This document shows positions 5,199 to 56,686 of a DNA stretch of 64,000 bases, one piece after another; position 1 is the first letter of the stretch; every line of letters starts with the position of its first letter. The DNA is from Acinetobacter baumannii. GTDB lineage: Bacteria > Pseudomonadota > Gammaproteobacteria > Pseudomonadales > Moraxellaceae. A program made the translations under genes and the position numbers. Below the pieces are notes generated by a model. It was not told where the DNA came from and ran no database searches. It saw nothing but the letters and a program-made list of their open reading frames with translations. The DNA is taken from NCBI RefSeq assembly GCF_016508585.1, contig NZ_JADVOP010000010.1, forward strand, positions 1-64,000, given 5' to 3'.

Positions 5199-6233
5199 TT
5201 GAATACGATCACATTGCTTCAGCCCGATGATTGGCATGCCCACCTCCGTGATGGTCTTGCTTTAAAGCGTACAGTTCCAGATCTCGCCAAACAATTTGCC
5301 CGCGCGATTTGTATGCCTAATTTGGTTCCACCTGTAAAAACTGTAGATGAAGCCAATGCCTATCGTGATCGTATTATGGCGCATGTACCAGCAGATCTGG
5401 ATTTTGACCCGCGTATGGTCTTGTATTTTACCGATCATACTTCACCAGATGAAGTACGTAAAATTAAAGAGTCTCAACATGTCAATGCCATTAAGCTTTA
5501 CCCGGCTGGTGCAACCACCAACTCGGATAATGGTGTAAGTGATATTCGTAAAGTCTACGCGGTGATTGAGCAACTTGAAGAACATCAAGTTCCTTTACTA
5601 TTACATGGTGAAGTGACTCATCATCATGTGGATATTTTTGATCGTGAAAAACGCTTTTTAGATGAGGTGCTTTCGCCCTTATTAAAGCAGTTTCCAAAAT
5701 TAAAATTAGTTCTAGAACATATTACCACCAGTGAAGCAGCGCATTTTGTACTCGAACAAGACCGTAATGTTGCTGCAACCATCACTCCCCAGCACTTATT
5801 ATTTAACCGTAATGACATGTTGGTGGGTGGTGTAAAACCTCACTTCTATTGCTTACCGATTTTAAAACGTCAAACACATCAACAGACTTTACTAGAAGTC
5901 GCAACCAGTGGAAATCCCAAGTTTTTCTTGGGTACAGACAGTGCACCACACTCTAAAAATGCCAAAGAGAATGCATGCGGCTGTGCGGGCTGTTACAGTG
6001 CTCCAACTGCAATCGAACTGTATGCACAAGCATTTGACCAAGTGAACAAAATCGAACGTCTTGAAGGTTTTGCCAGCATCTTTGGAGCGGACTTCTATGG
6101 TTTGCCTCGCAATACAAATACGATTACTCTTGTCAAAGAAGAACAGGTAATCCCTGAAAGTTTAGATTATTTGGATGGTGAACAGATTATTCCACTTTAT
6201 GCTGGAAAAGCCATCCAATGGAGAAAGGTGTGA
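5199..6233 (+). CDS. pyrC: Dihydroorotase, PyrC
   Basis: The product is 344 aa, the usual length of the class II bacterial enzyme. It closes carbamoyl aspartate to dihydroorotate in pyrimidine synthesis. Visible metal-site motifs are WHAHLRDG near the N-terminus, the carboxylated-lysine region [29 protein letters not shown] and GTDSAPH. The start is a TTG codon: [16 protein letters not shown] begins exactly where family members begin, and no ATG lies near. The gene overlaps rnt by 16 bp, so the two are probably translated from one message. Confidence 0.97.
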
Positions 6234-6877
6234 CAACTGAAACATTACCTGTGATTGGACAACGATTTCGTGGCTTTTTACCCGTCGTTGTTGATGTAGA
6301 AACAGCAGGTTTTAATGCAGATACTGATGCGTTGCTGGAAATAGCATGCATCCCGATTGTGTATGATGCCGAAGGCAAATTTGTTCCTGGCGAAGCGCAT
6401 CATGCACATATCAACCCCTTCGAAGGGGCAAATTTAGATCGTCGTTCATTGGATTTTATTGGCATTGATCCATTCAATCCGATGCGTATGGCGATGGCTG
6501 AAGATGAGAAAACGGCACTCAAACGCATTTTTAAAGCAGTGAATGAAGTGCGTCGCCAACAAAATTGTACACATGCCGTCTTGGTTGGACACAATGCGCA
6601 TTTTGATTTAGGTTTTTTAAAAGCAGCAATTGCCCGTACCGGAACAAAAAATCAAAATCCATTTCATAGCTTTTCAGTATTTGATACGGTCACACTCAGT
6701 GCAGTGATGTTTGGACAAACTGTCTTGGCAAAATCATGCATTCAAGCTGGAATTGAATTTGATGGTCGAGAAGCACATTCAGCATTGTACGATACACAAA
6801 AGACCGCCGAACTGTTCTGCTATATTTTGAACAAACTCGCCCCTCACTTACTTGACACTTTGATGGCGGATCAATAA
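6218..6877 (+). CDS. rnt: Ribonuclease T
   Basis: The product is 219 aa. It is a DEDD-family 3'-5' exoribonuclease that trims tRNA CCA ends and other stable RNA 3' ends. The four acidic residues and the His are visible: [10 protein letters not shown] (Asp, Glu), [12 protein letters not shown] (Asp), and [14 protein letters not shown] (His, Asp). The ATG lies inside the end of pyrC; a GTG four codons further in is an alternative. The first tRNA-Glu gene begins only 20 bp after the stop, so read-through from the pyrC-rnt transcript into that tRNA is likely. Confidence 0.96.
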
Positions 6878-6897
6878 GATAGCGCCATCTTCTAAAC

Positions 6898-6973
6898 GAC
6901 CCTATCGTCTAGAGGCCTAGGACATCGCCCTTTCACGGCGGTAACCGGGGTTCGAATCCCCGTAGGGTCGCCA
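6898..6973 (+). tRNA. tRNA-Glu (TTC), copy 1
   Basis: This 76-nt cloverleaf has anticodon TTC in the loop CTTTCAC, acceptor stem GACCCTA/TAGGGTC and encoded CCA. It is identical to the copies at 8899, 11901 and 12019. It starts 20 bp after rnt and has no consensus promoter directly in front. Confidence 0.97.
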
Positions 6974-7122
6974 TATTTTCTCTTCTTATGCAACACCATT
7001 ACTTAATTCTGAGTAATTCCAATTTATTTTCTTATACTTTACGCGTAGTTATTTCATTTTATTTTGTGAATTTTCACATTTTAATCTAAAATATTGATTT
7101 AGCATTCTCAGTTACATCAAAT

Positions 7123-8550
7123 ATGCAATCTCCCGATCAATCGAATCAGCACATCAATGCTGATGGACAGTCTTTTGTCTTAAAAAGATCCATGACCAAA
7201 CGACACCTAATTATGTTGTCTTTAGGTGGTGCTATCGGCACAGGTTTATTTTTAAGCTCAGGTGAAGTCATCGCCCAAGCAGGGCCGATTGGTGCTGTGA
7301 TTTCCTATATCATTGGTGGCTTGATCGCTTATATGGTCATGCTTTGTCTGGGTGAATTGGCTGTGAATCAACCCGTTACTGGATCTTTTGGTGCATTTGC
7401 TGCCAAAAACATTGGTCCTGGTACAGGCTATATGGTCTCATGGATGTATTGGCTGGGTTGGTCTGCAACATTAGGTACGGAGTTTACAGCCGCTGCGATG
7501 CTGATGCAGGAATGGTTTCCAGCCACCTCGATCTGGCTATGGACCCTAATCTTCATTATCGCGGTACTGATCTCCAACCTCACTTCAACCCGTTTTTTTG
7601 CAGAGTCTGAATTCTGGTTATCTTTCGTCAAGGTGGCAACCGTTCTGGTCTTCATTCTTTTAGGCTTGGCGGCGATATTCGGTTTAATTCCATTTCATGG
7701 CTATGAGTCTGCACCTTTATTCAGTCACTTGACCTCACACGGCTGGCTGCCCAATGGACTATTTCCTATCTTTGCAACCATGCTGATTGTTAACTTTGCA
7801 TTTAATGGTACAGAAATGATCGGGATCGCAGCGGGAGAAACCGAAAATCCAGAAAAAAATGTACCGAAAGCAATTCATGCTGCCGTGTGGCGCTTGATGA
7901 TTTTCTTTGTCGGCACCATTATAGTGATCAGTTCACTGTTGCCCTATCAAGATGCTGGACTTGCTATACATGGAGAAGGTATCAGCAACAGTCCATTTGT
8001 GTCGGTATTTAATTTAATCGGTATTCCTTATGCAGAAGACATCATGCGTTTCGTGATTATCACGGCATTATTGTCTACAGCAAACTCAGGGCTTTACGCT
8101 GCTTCTCGTATGATGTGGGCACTCTCAGTTCAAAAACAATTACCGCGTATTTTTTCTAAACTGACTAAATCAGGAACACCTGTGATTGCAATTTTGGTCA
8201 CCATGATCGGAGGCTTACCCGGATTATTATCAGAACAGTTCGGTGCAGATGTAATTTTCAAAAATTTATTGGGTGTCGCTGCATTTACCATGGTCATCGT
8301 ATGGATAAGCATTTGCTGGAGTCAGTTTAATTTCCGTCGTAAATGGCTCGCAAGCGGCAAAACTTTGACGGATTTAAAATTTAAGACACCTTGGTATCCA
8401 CTTGTTCCAGTCTTGGGTTTCATCACCTGTACCGCAACAGGCTTAAGCATGGCAGCTGATCCTGAAATGCTTTCAGGCTTTATTGGCTGTTTATTATTTA
8501 TGGCATTCTGTTATGCGACCTATTATGGTGTGTACCATCAGAAAAAATAA
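7123..8550 (+). CDS. Amino-acid permease, AAT family (paralogue 1)
   Basis: The product is 475 aa with about 12 membrane segments. The N-terminal signature LGGAIGTGLFLSSGEVIAQAGP and LCLGELAV identify the amino acid-polyamine-organocation (APC) superfamily, AAT family. By eye it is nearest to the RocE/LysP/MmuP group, so the substrate could be a basic amino acid or S-methylmethionine; this is not proven. The cytoplasmic E-x-P loop reads GETENPEKNVPKAI. It is strikingly similar along its whole length to the permease at 9309-10739. Each permease sits between tRNA-Glu copies, which points to segmental duplication. Confidence 0.9.
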   Translation: MQSPDQSNQHINADGQSFVLKRSMTKRHLIMLSLGGAIGTGLFLSSGEVIAQAGPIGAVISYIIGGLIAYMVMLCLGELAVNQPVTGSFGAFAAKNIGPGTGYMVSWMYWLGWSATLGTEFTAAAMLMQEWFPATSIWLWTLIFIIAVLISNLTSTRFFAESEFWLSFVKVATVLVFILLGLAAIFGLIPFHGYESAPLFSHLTSHGWLPNGLFPIFATMLIVNFAFNGTEMIGIAAGETENPEKNVPKAIHAAVWRLMIFFVGTIIVISSLLPYQDAGLAIHGEGISNSPFVSVFNLIGIPYAEDIMRFVIITALLSTANSGLYAASRMMWALSVQKQLPRIFSKLTKSGTPVIAILVTMIGGLPGLLSEQFGADVIFKNLLGVAAFTMVIVWISICWSQFNFRRKWLASGKTLTDLKFKTPWYPLVPVLGFITCTATGLSMAADPEMLSGFIGCLLFMAFCYATYYGVYHQKK

Positions 8551-8898
8551 TACATTCAGAAGCTTCTCAGGCACCAGCTGTTCAATGTGTGCTTGAGATC
8601 AAGCTAAGTGCCATTCATTATTTTATGATATAAATAAAGTTAATCAATCATGGATGAATCAAACCCATGTTCAATAAATCCCCCATATAAAGCCTGCCGA
8701 CATACCTTAAATTTTAATCTACAGCACACTCCCAATTACATTTGGTTTTAATCACCAAAGCGAATCTCATACAGTATTGATTAAATGATATGCTTAAAAA
8801 CCGGTAATTGTCGATTGATTCATCAGTTAGCATATTTTTGCATAAATCTGTTTTGACAAAGGCGCGGTTTATTATTAATATACGCATCACCTCACAAC
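8551..8898. other. 348-bp intergenic region with tRNA promoter
   Basis: Apart from the consensus promoter at 8853-8881 I see no gene or repeat here. A short GCTTGAGATCAAGC palindrome lies near the 5' end and has no T-run. Confidence 0.5.
8853..8881 (+). promoter_or_regulatory. Sigma-70 promoter of tRNA-Glu copy 2
   Basis: TTGACA (8853-8858), a 17-bp spacer and TAATAT (8876-8881) lie 17 bp in front of the tRNA. The match to consensus is near perfect, as expected for a stable RNA gene. Confidence 0.85.
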
Positions 8899-8974
8899 GA
8901 CCCTATCGTCTAGAGGCCTAGGACATCGCCCTTTCACGGCGGTAACCGGGGTTCGAATCCCCGTAGGGTCGCCA
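8899..8974 (+). tRNA. tRNA-Glu (TTC), copy 2
   Basis: This 76-nt gene is identical in sequence to copy 1, with encoded CCA. It has its own consensus promoter and a terminator 42 bp downstream, so it is an independent transcription unit. Confidence 0.97.
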
Positions 8975-9015
8975 TATTCGAGTCGATTTCTTAATTGAAA
9001 CTTCTCATAAAAAAG

Positions 9016-9042
9016 CCTGAGCAATAAGACTCAGGTTTTTTT
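9016..9042 (+). terminator. Terminator of tRNA-Glu copy 2
   Basis: CCTGAG ... CTCAGG hairpin followed by seven T. Its sequence is clearly related to the terminator after tRNA-Glu copy 4 at 12131. Confidence 0.85.
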
Positions 9043-9308
9043 ATATCCCAGTATTTTAAGCGGTCAAAAACACAGCAATAACATGGCGATGCTTTTTAGC
9101 ATTTTGCTGAACAATTGAGCTTTTCTATATGAAACTCATATAGGCTAAATTAAACATAAGAAATTGATTTAATATAAAAATTAAAAAAAATAAAAAATAG
9201 TGGAAATTTATATTATGGATTATTGCCGATTAAAACCACTCAGTCATTGCACTATTTCGCAATTGGACTAAAATAGCGCGCTTCTTGTTTTATTTCCATT
9301 TGAAGCTT

Positions 9309-10739
9309 ATGCCGTCATCACCAATTCAAAATGATGCTCAAGTATCATCTAATTCCTCACCACTCAAACGAGCAATGAGTACTCGTCACCTGGTGATGAT
9401 TTCGCTTGGTGGTGCAATTGGTACAGGGCTTTTTTTGGGATCCGGTGAAGTGATTTCACAAACAGGTCCAATTGGCGCCATCCTCTCTTATATTCTGGGC
9501 GGTGTAATTGCATATATGGTCATGCTTTGCTTAGGCGAACTTGCTGTACATATGCCAGAATCGGGTTCCTTTGGTACTTATGCCCAACGATATATCGGTC
9601 CAGGTACAGGCTATACTGTCACATGGTTATATTGGCTTACTTGGTCAGCAACTTTAGGTACAGAATTCACCGCAGCCGCTTTATTGATGCAAGAATGGTT
9701 TCCACACATCTCGATGTGGTTATGGACAATTATTTTTGCAGCAATTGTATTTGGATTGAATATGAGTTCAACCAAATGGTTTGCTGAATCTGAGTTCTGG
9801 CTGTCATTGGTCAAAGTGATTACCGTCATTGCATTCATTCTTTTTGGTCTACTGGCGATCTTTGGTATTCTCAATTATCAAGGGCATCATGAAGCCCCGC
9901 TGTTCAGTAATTTAACGGCTGAAGGCTGGTTTCCTCAAGGCTTATTTCCTATTTTCACGACCATGTTAATCGTCAACTTTGCCTTTTCTGGCACTGAGTT
10001 GATTGGTGTTGCCGCAGGTGAAACTGAAGATCCGGCCAAAAATGTTCCTAAAGCCATCAATACTGCGATCTGGCGCTTGTTGATTTTCTTTGTCGGCACC
10101 ATCATTGTAATCAGCGCATTATTACCACATCAAATGGCAGGTTTACACGCTGAAGGAGTAAGCAGCAGCCCTTTCGTTACTGTATTTGATCATATCGGTA
10201 TTCCTTATGCTGAGGACATCATTCGCTTTGTAATCATTACTGCATTGCTGTCTGCAGCGAATTCAGGACTATTTGCCGCCTCACGAATGATGTGGTCACT
10301 GTCAGCAAAAAAACAACTTCCTGCAATATTCTCAAGAGTCAATGCGCGTGGTATTCCTTATATTGCAGTGATTGTAACGATGTTTGGTGCGTTACCAGGC
10401 TTACTTTCAGAACAATTTGCACCTGAAACTATTTTTAAAAATCTATTGGGTGTGGCTGCTTTCACCATGGTTGTGGTGTGGATGAGCATTTGTCTGAGCC
10501 AATTTAATTTTAGACGTCAATGGTATAAACAGGGTCACAGTAAAGCTGAGTTAGGTTTTGCCGCACCTTTGTTTCCGATCGTACCGATTTTGGGTTTTGT
10601 ATTCTGCTTAATTACCTGTATTAGTATGGTGTTTGATCCTGAAATGGTGGTTGGTTTTATCTGCTGTTTAATCTTTATCGCCATTTGTTACATCAGCTAT
10701 GCATTCTTATATAAATCTCAGCATGATTCGCAGTCTTAA
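9309..10739 (+). CDS. Amino-acid permease, AAT family (paralogue 2)
   Basis: The product is 476 aa from the ATG at 9309; an in-frame TTG 24 bp upstream would add eight residues that have no counterpart in paralogue 1, so ATG is preferred. It has about 12 membrane segments and the AAT signatures LGGAIGTGLFLGSGEVIS, LCLGELAVHMP and AAGETEDPAKNVPKAI. It is very similar to the product at 7123-8550, with long shared blocks such as IRFVIITALLS, so both arose by duplication. The substrate is not known; a basic amino acid or S-methylmethionine is plausible from family resemblance. A hairpin terminator follows at 10766. Confidence 0.9.
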   Translation: MPSSPIQNDAQVSSNSSPLKRAMSTRHLVMISLGGAIGTGLFLGSGEVISQTGPIGAILSYILGGVIAYMVMLCLGELAVHMPESGSFGTYAQRYIGPGTGYTVTWLYWLTWSATLGTEFTAAALLMQEWFPHISMWLWTIIFAAIVFGLNMSSTKWFAESEFWLSLVKVITVIAFILFGLLAIFGILNYQGHHEAPLFSNLTAEGWFPQGLFPIFTTMLIVNFAFSGTELIGVAAGETEDPAKNVPKAINTAIWRLLIFFVGTIIVISALLPHQMAGLHAEGVSSSPFVTVFDHIGIPYAEDIIRFVIITALLSAANSGLFAASRMMWSLSAKKQLPAIFSRVNARGIPYIAVIVTMFGALPGLLSEQFAPETIFKNLLGVAAFTMVVVWMSICLSQFNFRRQWYKQGHSKAELGFAAPLFPIVPILGFVFCLITCISMVFDPEMVVGFICCLIFIAICYISYAFLYKSQHDSQS

Positions 10740-10765
10740 ATAAAATACTGCCAGTATTTCAAATC

Positions 10766-10793
10766 AAAAGTGTGGCAATTGCTACACTTTTTG
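10766..10793 (+). terminator. Terminator of permease paralogue 2
   Basis: AAAAGTGT ... ACACTTTTT hairpin with inner GC..GC pairing and loop AATT, about 27 bp after the stop codon. Confidence 0.75.
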
Positions 10794-10868
10794 TACATTT
10801 AGAGATAGTCAAAAAAGCTTTAAGCTCGTAAATTAAATTTATAAATCTTGTGTTTGATCGCAGCAGCA

Positions 10869-11753
10869 ATGAAAATTATTTTTATTCATGGCATGAATCA
10901 ACAAAATTATAATGCTGATAATTTAAAACAACATTGGCTTGATATTTTTCAACAGGGTATCAACGAACTTAAACTTGTTATTTCTGTCAGCGATCTTGAT
11001 ATCAGTCTGCCCTTTTATGGAGATTTGATCACCAAACATCAACTCAGTAATCGCTTTGATCTGGATGCTTTCCTGCCTAAGTCATGGGTCAATCTGCATT
11101 TTCATAAACACAGTGCGAGCACAGCGCCCACCGCCCCCAATACAATGCAGAGCATTCCAGTTTTACCTTACTTTATGCCCGAGCATGAGCTAAAACTGTC
11201 AAAACGGCTGTATTTAGTTTCTCAGCTCTTCAAAGACAAAGCATTAAAAGAATTTTCAGTAATTTTAAATAACTTTCCCAAACTGCATGAAAGTCTAATC
11301 CATAAGTTTTTGATCGAAACCTATTTATACTTGGCCAATCCTCAATTTATGGATGAAGTCCATCAACGAATTTTAGCAAGCTTAGAAGCAGATCAGACAC
11401 ATCTCATCGTTGCACATTCCCTAGGGACCGTGATTGCGTATAACCTTTTACAGCAACTCTCCCCACGATATAAAATCCAACGCTTCATTACGTTGGGCTC
11501 TCCCTTGGCATTTAAAGTCATTCAGTCCAGACTGACACCCCCGATTCAAAGCCCCGCTTGCTTAAATGGAGATTGGCATAATTTTTACTCTCCAGATGAC
11601 TTCCTCACGGCTTTTCCCTTGGTCAATGCACCATTTGACTTTCAGCCTGCCATTTTAAATACGTCTATTTCAACTTTTATCCATTCTCCCCACCAGATTG
11701 CCGGCTATTTACAGCATCCTGCCGTGATTAAGAATATAGTAGACGCACTTTAA
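10869..11753 (+). CDS. Alpha/beta-hydrolase fold protein
   Basis: The product is 294 aa from the ATG at 10869; an upstream in-frame TTG (10848) is less likely because the fold begins MKIIFIHGMNQQ. The HGMNQQ oxyanion-type loop and the nucleophile elbow AHSLGT (about residues 180-185) mark an alpha/beta hydrolase, probably with lipase/esterase-like chemistry. FITLGSPLAF is a typical following strand, and SPDDFLTAFPLVNAP carries a possible acidic residue. No signal peptide is seen, so it should be cytoplasmic. The substrate is unknown. It lies between permease paralogue 2 and tRNA-Glu copies 3 and 4. Confidence 0.8.
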   Translation: MKIIFIHGMNQQNYNADNLKQHWLDIFQQGINELKLVISVSDLDISLPFYGDLITKHQLSNRFDLDAFLPKSWVNLHFHKHSASTAPTAPNTMQSIPVLPYFMPEHELKLSKRLYLVSQLFKDKALKEFSVILNNFPKLHESLIHKFLIETYLYLANPQFMDEVHQRILASLEADQTHLIVAHSLGTVIAYNLLQQLSPRYKIQRFITLGSPLAFKVIQSRLTPPIQSPACLNGDWHNFYSPDDFLTAFPLVNAPFDFQPAILNTSISTFIHSPHQIAGYLQHPAVIKNIVDAL

Positions 11754-11854
11754 ATATCATCAGCACAATTCAATGGATAGTTTTGCTCTTTTTGTGTTAT
11801 TGCTTTGTTTTTATACATATAAATCAAGTTTTCAATTTTATTGCAGAAAAAGGT

Positions 11855-11883
11855 TTGACACATCCCTGTATTCACCCTAATAT
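11855..11883 (+). promoter_or_regulatory. Sigma-70 promoter of tRNA-Glu copies 3 and 4
   Basis: TTGACA (11855-11860), 17-bp spacer and TAATAT (11878-11883). The following bases TACGC also match those after the promoter at 8853, supporting common descent. Confidence 0.85.
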
Positions 11884-11900
11884 ACGCCCACCTCTGAAAC

Positions 11901-11976
11901 GACCCTATCGTCTAGAGGCCTAGGACATCGCCCTTTCACGGCGGTAACCGGGGTTCGAATCCCCGTAGGGTCGCCA
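11901..11976 (+). tRNA. tRNA-Glu (TTC), copy 3
   Basis: 76-nt gene identical to the other three tRNA-Glu copies, with encoded CCA. It is probably co-transcribed with copy 4, which begins 42 bp downstream. Confidence 0.97.
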
Positions 11977-12018
11977 TTAATACTATGGTTTTGTTTCAAG
12001 TGTTTGCCTCAATTTATT

Positions 12019-12094
12019 GACCCTATCGTCTAGAGGCCTAGGACATCGCCCTTTCACGGCGGTAACCGGGGTTCGAATCCCCGTAGGGTCGCCA
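12019..12094 (+). tRNA. tRNA-Glu (TTC), copy 4
   Basis: 76-nt gene identical to the other copies. It has no promoter of its own in the 42-bp gap after copy 3, and a terminator follows at 12131. Confidence 0.97.
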
Positions 12095-12130
12095 CATTCG
12101 GGATTGTTTTTTCATAAAACGTCTCACAAA

Positions 12131-12165
12131 AAAACCTGAGCATCATGACTCAGGTTTTTTGTTTT
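12131..12165 (+). terminator. Terminator of the tRNA-Glu pair
   Basis: AAAACCTGAG ... CTCAGGTTTTTT hairpin, homologous to the one after tRNA-Glu copy 2. Confidence 0.85.
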
Positions 12166-12205: not shown

Positions 12206-12605
12206 TTATCGTACATCGATCAATTGCTCTGAATTAAAGCATATACTGGATGCGATCACCATGTCATTCAATGGAATATGCTGACCATATCTTTGTTTCA
12301 TTAGCGCTTTGACACTTGGATGACCAAGATCAAAACTGGATAGTTTGTCCAAGAGTGCCACTTCTATTGCTAAAGCTTTTTTATACGTTTTACAAACCCA
12401 CTCTGAACAATAAACCGCATTGTCTGACCATTTTTCACCACAATCATCCCCATATGACTGTATGGTGACTGTGTGGCTCGCTGAATCACAAGGCTTTGGG
12501 TTGGTTTAGAGCTATGAAGATAATATCTCCTGTTTGATAAGTCGCGGCATAACCAAAAATGGGAGAAAATAATATCAATAAAACGCTCAATAGATTTAAG
12601 AACAT
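12206..12605 (-). pseudogene. Broken YiiX-type permuted papain-like hydrolase gene
   Basis: Three pieces in three different minus-strand frames line up with one YiiX/C92-type protein. Piece one (from the ATG at 12605) gives a signal peptide and YQTGDIIF. A frameshift near 12518 leads to piece two, KPTQSLVIQRATQ and SPYSHMGMIVVKNGQ, which includes the family's His motif. Piece two stops near 12370. Piece three gives SSFDLGHPSVKALMKQRYG and QHIPLNDMVIAS and ends at a stop at 12206. The middle of the protein, which in YiiX carries the catalytic Cys (YCSE-type motif), is missing. The gene is therefore both frameshifted and internally deleted, and cannot make an active enzyme. Confidence 0.75.
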
Positions 12606-30845: not shown

Positions 30846-30921
30846 TCTCCAATAGCTCAGTCGGTAGAGCGACGGACTGTTAATCCGCAGGTCCCTGGTT
30901 CGAGCCCAGGTTGGAGAGCCA
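30846..30921 (+). tRNA. tRNA-Asn (GTT), copy 1
   Basis: 76-nt cloverleaf with anticodon GTT (CTGTTAA loop), acceptor stem TCTCCAA/TTGGAGA and encoded CCA. Identical to copy 3 at 31338. Confidence 0.97.
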
Positions 30922-30926
30922 TCTAT

Positions 30927-31002
30927 TCTTCCATAGCTCAGTCGGTAGAGCGACGGACTGTTAATCCGCAGGTCCCTGGTTCGAGCCCAGGTGGAAGAGC
31001 CA
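30927..31002 (+). tRNA. tRNA-Asn (GTT), copy 2, variant acceptor stem
   Basis: 76-nt gene 5 bp after copy 1, with the same body but acceptor stem TCTTCCA/TGGAAGA. The two pairs that differ from copies 1 and 3 (C4-G69 to T-A; A6-T67 to C-G) are fully compensated, so the cloverleaf is intact. Confidence 0.96.
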
Positions 31003-31008
31003 GATTCT

Positions 31009-31041
31009 AAAAAGCCCACTCATGATGAAGTGGGCTTTTTT
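31009..31041 (+). terminator. Terminator of tRNA-Asn copies 1 and 2
   Basis: AAAAGCCCACT ... AGTGGGCTTTTTT hairpin just after copy 2; related to the terminator after copy 3. Confidence 0.9.
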
Positions 31042-31297
31042 ATGGTTAAAATTTAACAGTATTGCAAAGACAAACCGTACAATCAATTAAATGAAAATCA
31101 GTACTGGCTGAATAGATTGCCAGTAGAGCTAGGTCATTTGAATGATGATTGAGTTGATCTAAGGTTTAAGTTAAACACTGACTCTGGTGAAGCCGAATAC
31201 TCCTTTTAAACAAATCTATGAATTTCTTTATTTTTATTCAAAATGATCAATTATTTAGCAAACAATACTTTTTTATGGTGAATTTAACAATTTTTCC

Positions 31298-31326
31298 TTG
31301 ACCCATCAGCATTTCCTCCCTAAAAT
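31298..31326 (+). promoter_or_regulatory. Sigma-70 promoter of tRNA-Asn copy 3
   Basis: TTGACC (31298-31303), 17-bp spacer and TAAAAT (31321-31326) followed by GCG; nearly the same layout as the promoter at 30806. Confidence 0.85.
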
Positions 31327-31337
31327 GCGTTCCAGAT

Positions 31338-31413
31338 TCTCCAATAGCTCAGTCGGTAGAGCGACGGACTGTTAATCCGCAGGTCCCTGGTTCGAGCCCA
31401 GGTTGGAGAGCCA
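31338..31413 (+). tRNA. tRNA-Asn (GTT), copy 3
   Basis: 76-nt gene identical to copy 1, with encoded CCA. It has its own promoter and terminator. Confidence 0.97.
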
Positions 31414-53618: not shown

Positions 53619-53704
53619 GCCCGAGTGGTGAAATCGGTAGACACAGGGGATTTAAAATCCCCCGCCCACAAAGCGTGCCAGTTCGAGTCTGGCCTCGGGC
53701 ACCA
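53619..53704 (+). tRNA. tRNA-Leu (TAA), copy 1
   Basis: 86-nt class II tRNA with a long variable arm, anticodon TAA (loop TTTAAAA) and encoded CCA. Identical to the copy at 56601. Confidence 0.97.
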
Positions 53705-56600: not shown

Positions 56601-56686
56601 GCCCGAGTGGTGAAATCGGTAGACACAGGGGATTTAAAATCCCCCGCCCACAAAGCGTGCCAGTTCGAGTCTGGCCTCGGGCACCA
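56601..56686 (+). tRNA. tRNA-Leu (TAA), copy 2
   Basis: 86-nt gene identical to copy 1 at 53619, same strand, with encoded CCA. It has its own promoter and is not linked to another tRNA. Confidence 0.97.

What the first reader, a model, noticed from the sequence alone, without database searches (positions are those of the whole stretch)
6898..12165. Four identical tRNA-Glu genes interleaved with duplicated amino-acid permeases
Four tRNA-Glu(TTC) genes read base-for-base the same. The order is tRNA, permease 1, tRNA, permease 2, hydrolase, tRNA, tRNA. The permeases are close paralogues, the promoters of copies 2 and 3 share -35, spacing, -10 and TACGC downstream, and the terminators after copies 2 and 4 are homologous. 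This looks like segmental duplication mediated by tRNA recombination. Identity of all four copies implies ongoing gene conversion, and the locus could expand or contract between strains. Linkage of glutamate tRNA and an amino-acid importer may be accidental.
Basis: partly seen in the sequence, partly recalled or inferred. Interest (0 to 1): 0.6.

Follow-up and report, generated by a model that had tools for sequence, protein, structure and literature searches.

The report
Self-correcting tRNA-Glu gene array in Acinetobacter
Four identical glutamate-tRNA genes sit between unrelated genes in an Acinetobacter chromosome, and comparing relatives shows that the copies overwrite one another so that a change in one spreads to its neighbours, a known kind of gene-copy correction caught part-way here.

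Summary
Four identical tRNA-Glu(TTC) genes lie in the order rnt-T1-permease1-T2-permease2-hydrolase-T3-T4.

Eighty related rnt loci support concerted evolution. Copies switch a compensatory acceptor pair, U2:A71 to A2:U71. Of 58 loci with two or more copies, 45 are uniform for the scored pairs (36 U, 9 A). The 13 mixed loci form one clade, where A2:U71 appears to be spreading copy by copy. Near-sisters L052 and L053 differ within T1 only at positions 2 and 71, with T1's own flanks kept. The tRNA-Ala-linked copy is U2:A71 in all 104 of 149 genomes where it was found.

Crossover inside the tRNA also occurs, apparently rarely: two loci (L058, L073) have T1's upstream side joined to a T2-type downstream side, the slot between being lost. 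The permeases are one ancient duplication (66% aa, silent sites saturated). A tRNA crossover could have made it, but that cannot now be shown. They resemble S-methylmethionine permease, so the link with glutamate looks accidental.

Verdict: a good example of a known process, at a GluRS identity pair.

The parts
6898..6973 (+). tRNA-Glu(TTC) copy T1, acceptor pair A2:U71
8899..8974 (+). tRNA-Glu(TTC) copy T2, identical
11901..11976 (+). tRNA-Glu(TTC) copy T3, identical
12019..12094 (+). tRNA-Glu(TTC) copy T4, identical, no own promoter seen
6852..6880 (+). T1 promoter TTGACA-17-TAAGAT overlapping the 3' end of rnt; exact in 66 of 67 loci with T1
8853..8881 (+). T2 promoter TTGACA-17-TAATAT
11855..11883 (+). 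T3 promoter TTGACA-17-TAATAT
9010..9041 (+). terminator-like hairpin after T2
   Evidence: the scan lists the stem on the - strand only
12129..12160 (+). terminator-like hairpin after T4, 86% like the one after T2 over 44 nt
7123..8550 (+). permease 1 (AA_permease; best NCBIfam S-methylmethionine permease, below cut-off)
9309..10739 (+). permease 2 (same family; searched as 9312-10739)
10869..11753 (+). alpha/beta-hydrolase-like protein (weak, below Pfam cut-off)
6218..6877 (+). rnt, RNase T; left anchor of the array
5199..6233 (+). pyrC, dihydroorotase; left anchor

Best explanation
This is a dispersed tRNA-Glu gene array under concerted evolution. T1, T2 and T3 are separate promoter-driven units and T4 probably rides behind T3. 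The copies exchange sequence mostly by short non-crossover gene conversion (presumably RecA-dependent), with tracts of about the tRNA length, so a new variant in one copy spreads to others while each copy keeps its own flanks. Now and then a crossover inside the tRNA deletes the genes between two copies. The copy beside gltX takes no part. Tandem copies at the T3/T4 end also expand and contract. The two permeases come from one ancient duplication that may have been an unequal crossover between tRNAs. Shown: identity, promoter-like sites, variant distribution, near-sister difference, chimeric T1/T2 flanks in two loci, copy-number and slot variation. Inferred: the enzymes, the direction of conversion, and the origin of the permease duplication.
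For: There are 257 tRNA-Glu genes in 81 loci (80 fetched plus the window): 182 U2:A71, 65 A2:U71, 7 U2:A71 with C6:G67, and 3 single copies with another difference or cut short. Nine of 10 rnt-linked copies from other genera carry U2:A71 and the tenth C2:G71, so A2:U71 is derived. Of 58 loci with two or more copies, 45 are uniform for these pairs (36 U, 9 A) and 13 mixed; the 13 are one clade, SH-aLRT 98. Scored copy by copy, T1, T2, T3 and last copy need 5, 4, 3 and 3 changes of the two-base pair (67, 55, 55, 53 loci); array state (uniform U, uniform A, mixed) needs 3. In the mixed clade the last copy is A2:U71 in 13 of 13, T2 in 12, T1 in 2, T3 in 2. L052 and L053 differ within T1 only at 2 and 71, with both flanks orthologous. 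The tRNA-Ala-linked copy is U2:A71 in 85 + 19 = 104 of 149 genomes, A2:U71 in 0; 21 of the 30 genomes with exact A2:U71 copies are among the 104. A motif downstream of T2 in 46 of 53 loci and of T1 in 0 of 43 follows the rnt-side tRNA in L058 and L073.
Against: Conversion is inferred from between-species data; no within-species polymorphism was seen. L023 has U2:A71 inside an otherwise A2:U71 clade, at an insecure place next to a long branch (quick tree of one region). Transfer of a short tract from another species could mimic conversion. L053 also lost one A just upstream of T1; this fits T2 as donor, but L048 has the same flank with U2:A71. Beside gltX was verified only in the window's genome; 45 of 149 genomes matched neither pattern, among them 9 of the 30 with A2:U71 copies, though each of these 9 has exactly one further match that is not of the exact A2:U71 type. 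In some genomes A2:U71 copies lie tens of kb or over 1 Mb apart (G063, G122; G050), so distance alone does not explain why one copy is spared, unless rearrangement came after homogenisation. The motif was chosen after seeing L058 and L073, and the window itself lacks it.
Confidence: 0.85

Rival explanations
1. Segmental duplication by unequal crossover between tRNA-Glu copies made the whole array, permeases included, and crossovers between tRNAs are the main force that reshapes it.
For: T-perm-T-perm-T is what such a crossover would leave. 81 perm rows form one clade, SH-aLRT 100, against the outside relatives, and perm1 (23 rows) is one clade. In 2 of 6 loci with T1 and perm2 but no T2 (L058, L073) the rnt-side tRNA has the T2-type downstream motif at +44 and +60, where T2 has it at +34 to +65 and T1 never (0 of 43): the product of a crossover inside the tRNA. 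Tandem tRNA expansion in L062 against L055 with two identical 25-nt spacers.
Against: At identical A/G/P/T/V residues only 40 of 120 third positions of perm1 and perm2 agree, and flanks do not align. The other 4 of those 6 loci lack the motif. Of 30 close pairs flagged as different in the slot, 5 have unbroken homology, 23 have both boundaries and 2 only the left: homology ends 12 to 2928 bp after T1 and resumes 84 to 459 bp before T2. Four pairs end 12 to 19 bp after T1, too near to exclude a junction at its edge by distance, but their flanks read like T1's, not T2's (by eye). 16 of 45 loci with T1 and T2 have no ORF of 80 aa between them.
Confidence: 0.35
2. The copies are identical simply because tRNA-Glu is under strong purifying selection; no exchange is needed.
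For: The tRNA is highly conserved: 254 of 257 copies fall in three types.
Against: The 2:71 pair is free to be U:A or A:U between species, yet agrees within arrays in 45 of 58 loci; copies scored separately need 15 double changes.
Confidence: 0.1
3. The array is a tRNA-targeted integration hotspot, and the extra copies are att-type duplications left by genomic islands.
For: Several loci have unrelated neighbours after T1 or perm2, and some genomes have copies tens of kb apart.
Against: All repeats are full-length genes, T1-T3 with promoter-like sites, not 3' fragments. No integrase family was hit by the seven window proteins scanned; relatives were not scanned for integrases. Neighbours of L013, L021, L058 and L073 read as ordinary chromosomal genes such as purB, alr, purF and pyrD, named by recall from the translations.
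Confidence: 0.05

Closest known systems
Concerted evolution of tRNA gene families (general; PMC4981973 and PMC5745555, starts of abstracts seen in the listing)
   Same: Paralogous tRNA copies within a genome are kept alike.
   Different: Here several copies are separated by protein genes and keep separate promoters, the marker is a compensatory acceptor pair, and an unlinked copy is left out. Those papers concern eukaryotes or general method, as far as the listing shows.
tRNA gene copy-number growth by large duplications in Pseudomonas fluorescens SBW25 (PMC7661048; abstract, outline and one passage seen)
   Same: tRNA gene number changes by duplication of existing genes.
   Different: There 45-290 kb duplications; here about 100-nt tandem units and dispersed single copies.
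E. coli glutamate tRNA identity set (PMC9976931; passages seen, section 16 among them)
   Same: U2-A71 is listed there as a weak GluRS determinant; this is the pair that changes here.
   Different: In the window's clade the array copies carry A2:U71.
S-methylmethionine permease family (NCBIfam NF008484)
   Same: Best NCBIfam match of both permeases.
   Different: 561 and 615 bits are below the cut-off of 716.

Membership tests
Concerted evolution by gene conversion | Copies more alike within a genome than expected from independent descent | tested here: met
   45 of 58 loci uniform for the scored pairs; 15 changes copy by copy against 3 for array state
Concerted evolution by gene conversion | A variant moves between copies with flanks retained | tested here: met
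   L052/L053 T1; mixed clade
Concerted evolution by gene conversion | Dependence on homologous recombination | not testable with these tools
   needs a recA mutant
tRNA-mediated segmental duplication | Duplicated block includes flanking sequence beyond the gene | tested here: not met
   permease flanks do not align; they may have diverged too far
tRNA-mediated segmental duplication | Crossover junction inside a tRNA copy | tested here: inconclusive
   two deletion products, L058 and L073, among 6 loci without T2; no duplication product found, and 23 close pairs with both boundaries break outside T2 and at least 16 bp after T1
tRNA-mediated segmental duplication | Paralogues share one origin | tested here: met
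   81 rows one clade, SH-aLRT 100, quick tree with long-branch warnings
tRNA-targeted genomic island | Integrase beside a tRNA and a partial 3' att repeat | tested here: not met
   full-length copies with promoter-like sites; no integrase family among the seven window proteins scanned; relatives not scanned
S-methylmethionine permease (NF008484) | Score above the curated cut-off | tested here: not met
   561 and 615 against 716

The most novel reading that the evidence does not exclude
Two pools of tRNA-Glu are kept apart by selection. The array copies are free to switch as a group to A2:U71, an alteration of a GluRS identity pair, even where they lie far apart, while the copy behind the tRNA-Ala (and, where checked, behind gltX itself) is held at the ancestral U2:A71 in every genome where it was found, so the synthetase gene carries its own reference tRNA outside the conversion zone.
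Probability: 0.1. Interest if true: 0.65.

Novelty: new member of a known kind. Interest (0 to 1): 0.42.

Why it matters
Exchange between tRNA genes is usually invisible because the copies are identical in all species. Here a two-base compensatory switch acts as a natural marker, with one clade caught part-way, so the rate, direction and reach of conversion between 76-bp repeats could be measured in a genus with a tractable, naturally competent laboratory strain (recalled). The marked pair is also a known weak determinant for the charging enzyme.

Tried and rejected
L010, L013, L021 and L082, which also lack T2, do not show the motif; L010's flank starts like T1's (by eye). TonB-receptor swaps (L028 against L031-L033) looked at first like tRNA-bounded cassette exchange, but the breakpoints are 411-731 bp after T1 and 459 bp before T2, within or at the end of the receptor gene. 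The doubled receptor in L018 and L020 is two different receptors (37-38% identity), not a recent duplication. T2 as donor of the L053 conversion is suggestive only. Literature searches: in the titles and abstract starts listed I saw none on this Acinetobacter locus or on conversion among bacterial tRNA-Glu genes; several concern rRNA, eukaryotic tRNA or endosymbionts (for example PMC4479817, not read), and the library is partial.
Full report
Observation. Around them lie pyrC and rnt (NCBIfam dihydroorotase and ribonuclease T above cut-off), two AA_permease proteins and a weak alpha/beta-hydrolase match below cut-off. Promoter-like sites TTGACA-17-TAAGAT (T1) and TTGACA-17-TAATAT (T2, T3) precede the first three copies. 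The promoter count of the region is not above chance (17 found, mean 15.5 in shuffles), so the support comes from position and conservation: the T1 site, overlapping the 3' end of rnt, is exact in 66 of 67 loci that have T1. T4 follows T3 after 42 nt with no such site. The hairpins after T2 and T4 are alike. A. guillouiae L006 also has one after T2, while none is seen in the 100 nt after T2 in L007, L008 or L051. A fifth copy in the genome lies behind gltX (TIGR00464, 390 bits, cut-off 290; the part of the gene held in L005) and tRNA-Ala(GGC) and differs at pair 2:71.

Comparative set. One genome-contig scan with RNase T gave the best 80 of 413 related places. With the window this makes 81 loci; 2 (L016, L026) hold no tRNA-Glu. 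The recurring order is rnt-T1-[slot]-T2-perm2-[0-2 hydrolases]-T3-T4(-T5). T1, T2 and perm2 are all found in 43 loci, T1 and perm2 without T2 in 6, T2 and perm2 without T1 in 10, T1 without perm2 in 18, neither in 4 (some loci are cut by contig or fetch ends). In the 72 loci with at least 9 kb held downstream of rnt, the number of tRNA-Glu genes was 0 in 1, 1 in 16, 2 in 2, 3 in 6, 4 in 32, 5 in 13 and 6 in 2; counts are lower bounds where the array runs past the held DNA. Two records named A. towneri, L055 and L062, have 4 and 6 copies, and two spacers in L062 are identical 25-mers. In several loci without T1 the sequence after rnt shows a hairpin; in L018, L020 and L065 it still has ends like the tRNA acceptor stem (by eye). 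rnt-tRNA-Glu linkage is older than the genus: of 52 matches outside the genus, loci were given for the best 23 (L141-L163), and 10 of these have tRNA-Glu downstream of rnt within the held 1.5 kb.

Concerted evolution. The 257 copies fall almost entirely into three types that differ by compensatory pairs: 182 U2:A71, 65 A2:U71 (the window's type) and 7 U2:A71 with C6:G67. Three single copies have another difference or are cut (in L041, L083, L059). Of the 10 rnt-linked copies from other genera nine are U2:A71 and one C2:G71, so A2:U71 is derived. On a pyrC-rnt tree (quick search, SH-aLRT only), A2:U71 fills three separate parts: L083-L085, the guillouiae clade with the window (except L023; L016 has no copy), and a 13-member clade with mixed arrays. 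Of 58 loci with two or more copies, 45 are uniform for these pairs and 13 mixed. Scored separately, T1, T2, T3 and the last copy need 5, 4, 3 and 3 changes of the two-base pair; array state coded as uniform U, uniform A or mixed needs 3. In the mixed clade the last copy is A2:U71 in 13 of 13, T2 in 12 of 13, T1 and T3 in 2 of 13 each, which reads as stepwise spread from T4 to T2 and then outward (inference). The closest test is L052 against L053, about 97% alike over the first 600 nt of rnt: within T1 only positions 2 and 71 differ, rnt and the downstream side are orthologous, and one A is missing from the run 2-4 nt upstream. That is what a short conversion tract leaves.

Reach of conversion. 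Of 149 genus genomes (the window's included), 85 plus 19 others have a tRNA-Glu shortly behind a CCACCA end, all U2:A71; none has A2:U71 there (for spacers of 5-35, for both pairs and spacers of 36-66). Thirty genomes carry exact A2:U71 copies (these rank first, so the cut list is complete for them); 21 of the 30 are among the 104. The other nine matched neither pattern, but each has exactly one further match that is not of the exact A2:U71 type. gltX itself was verified beside this copy only in the window's genome. Against a purely local process, A2:U71 copies lie tens of kb apart in G063 and G122 and over 1 Mb apart in G050; whether rearrangement came later is not known. U2-A71 is described as a weak identity determinant for E. 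coli GluRS (PMC9976931, passage in section 16).

Crossover inside the tRNA. A motif that looks like the perm2 promoter (TTGCA, 15-22 nt, TANAAT) lies within 140 nt downstream of T2 in 46 of 53 loci (at +34 to +65) and of T1 in 0 of 43. In L058 and L073, two of the 6 loci with T1 and perm2 but no T2, it lies at +44 and +60 behind the tRNA that follows rnt. Such a chimera, T1 on the left and T2 on the right, is what a crossover inside the tRNA leaves when the slot between is deleted. The motif was chosen after these loci had been seen, and seven T2 flanks, the window's among them, lack it.

Permeases and slots. perm1 and perm2 are 66% identical; third codon positions are 42% identical, and 40 of 120 at identical A/G/P/T/V residues. 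Both have the same best relative outside the genus among the genomes sampled (G184, 54% and 58%; 115 genomes of the order, 274 of the class). 81 perm rows form one clade with SH-aLRT 100, perm1 alone 100; whether perm2 is a clade is unresolved and long branches are flagged. So the duplication is real but ancient. Of 45 loci with T1 and T2 (anchored on perm2 or, in L052 and L053, the hydrolase), 16 have no ORF of 80 aa between them (L040 has a perm1 remnant), and the rest hold perm1, a TonB-receptor-like gene or combinations. Of 30 close pairs flagged as different there, which share members and are not independent, 5 have unbroken homology; in 23 homology ends 16 to 2928 bp after T1 and resumes 84 to 459 bp before T2; in 2 (L052-L056, L053-L056) it ends 12 bp after T1 and the right boundary was not measured. 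So most recent slot changes seen here did not use the tRNAs, although two did by the flank test. The permeases' best NCBIfam match is S-methylmethionine permease, below cut-off; nothing ties them to glutamate.

Verdict. Gene conversion is supported strongly and copy-number change is supported. Crossover between tRNAs is supported as an occasional cause of slot loss, and remains only possible for the ancient permease duplication. The process is known in general; the natural marker and the part-way clade make this a useful case.

Noticed in passing
L028 10916-13411, L031 7874-10399 and 26 other rows: A TonB-receptor-like gene (Pfam Plug in the three scanned) lies between T1 and T2 in 18 of 45 loci that have both, and near rnt in others; its sequence is very variable, 32-95% identical. 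A. lwoffii records L028 and L031, 99.6% alike in pyrC-rnt, carry receptors 43% alike.
   Followed up: partly
window 12221-12551 (-): A YiiX-like gene, intact as a 204-aa frame in L006, matches here in three frames with an internal stop, so it is probably a broken gene.
   Followed up: partly
window 30846-31413: Three tRNA-Asn genes; copies 1 and 3 are identical, copy 2 differs in acceptor-stem positions.
   Followed up: no
window 53619-53704 and 56601-56686: Two identical tRNA-Leu(TAA) genes about 2.9 kb apart, another dispersed identical pair.
   Followed up: no
L018, L020, L065 just after rnt: Where T1 is absent, a hairpin with tRNA-Glu acceptor-stem ends remains, possibly a decayed tRNA kept as an RNA end signal (by eye).
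   Followed up: no
L009, L012, L013, L015, L021, L058, L073 downstream of T1 or perm2: The array is cut short and joined to different chromosomal genes, suggesting larger rearrangements with an end in this locus.
   Followed up: partly
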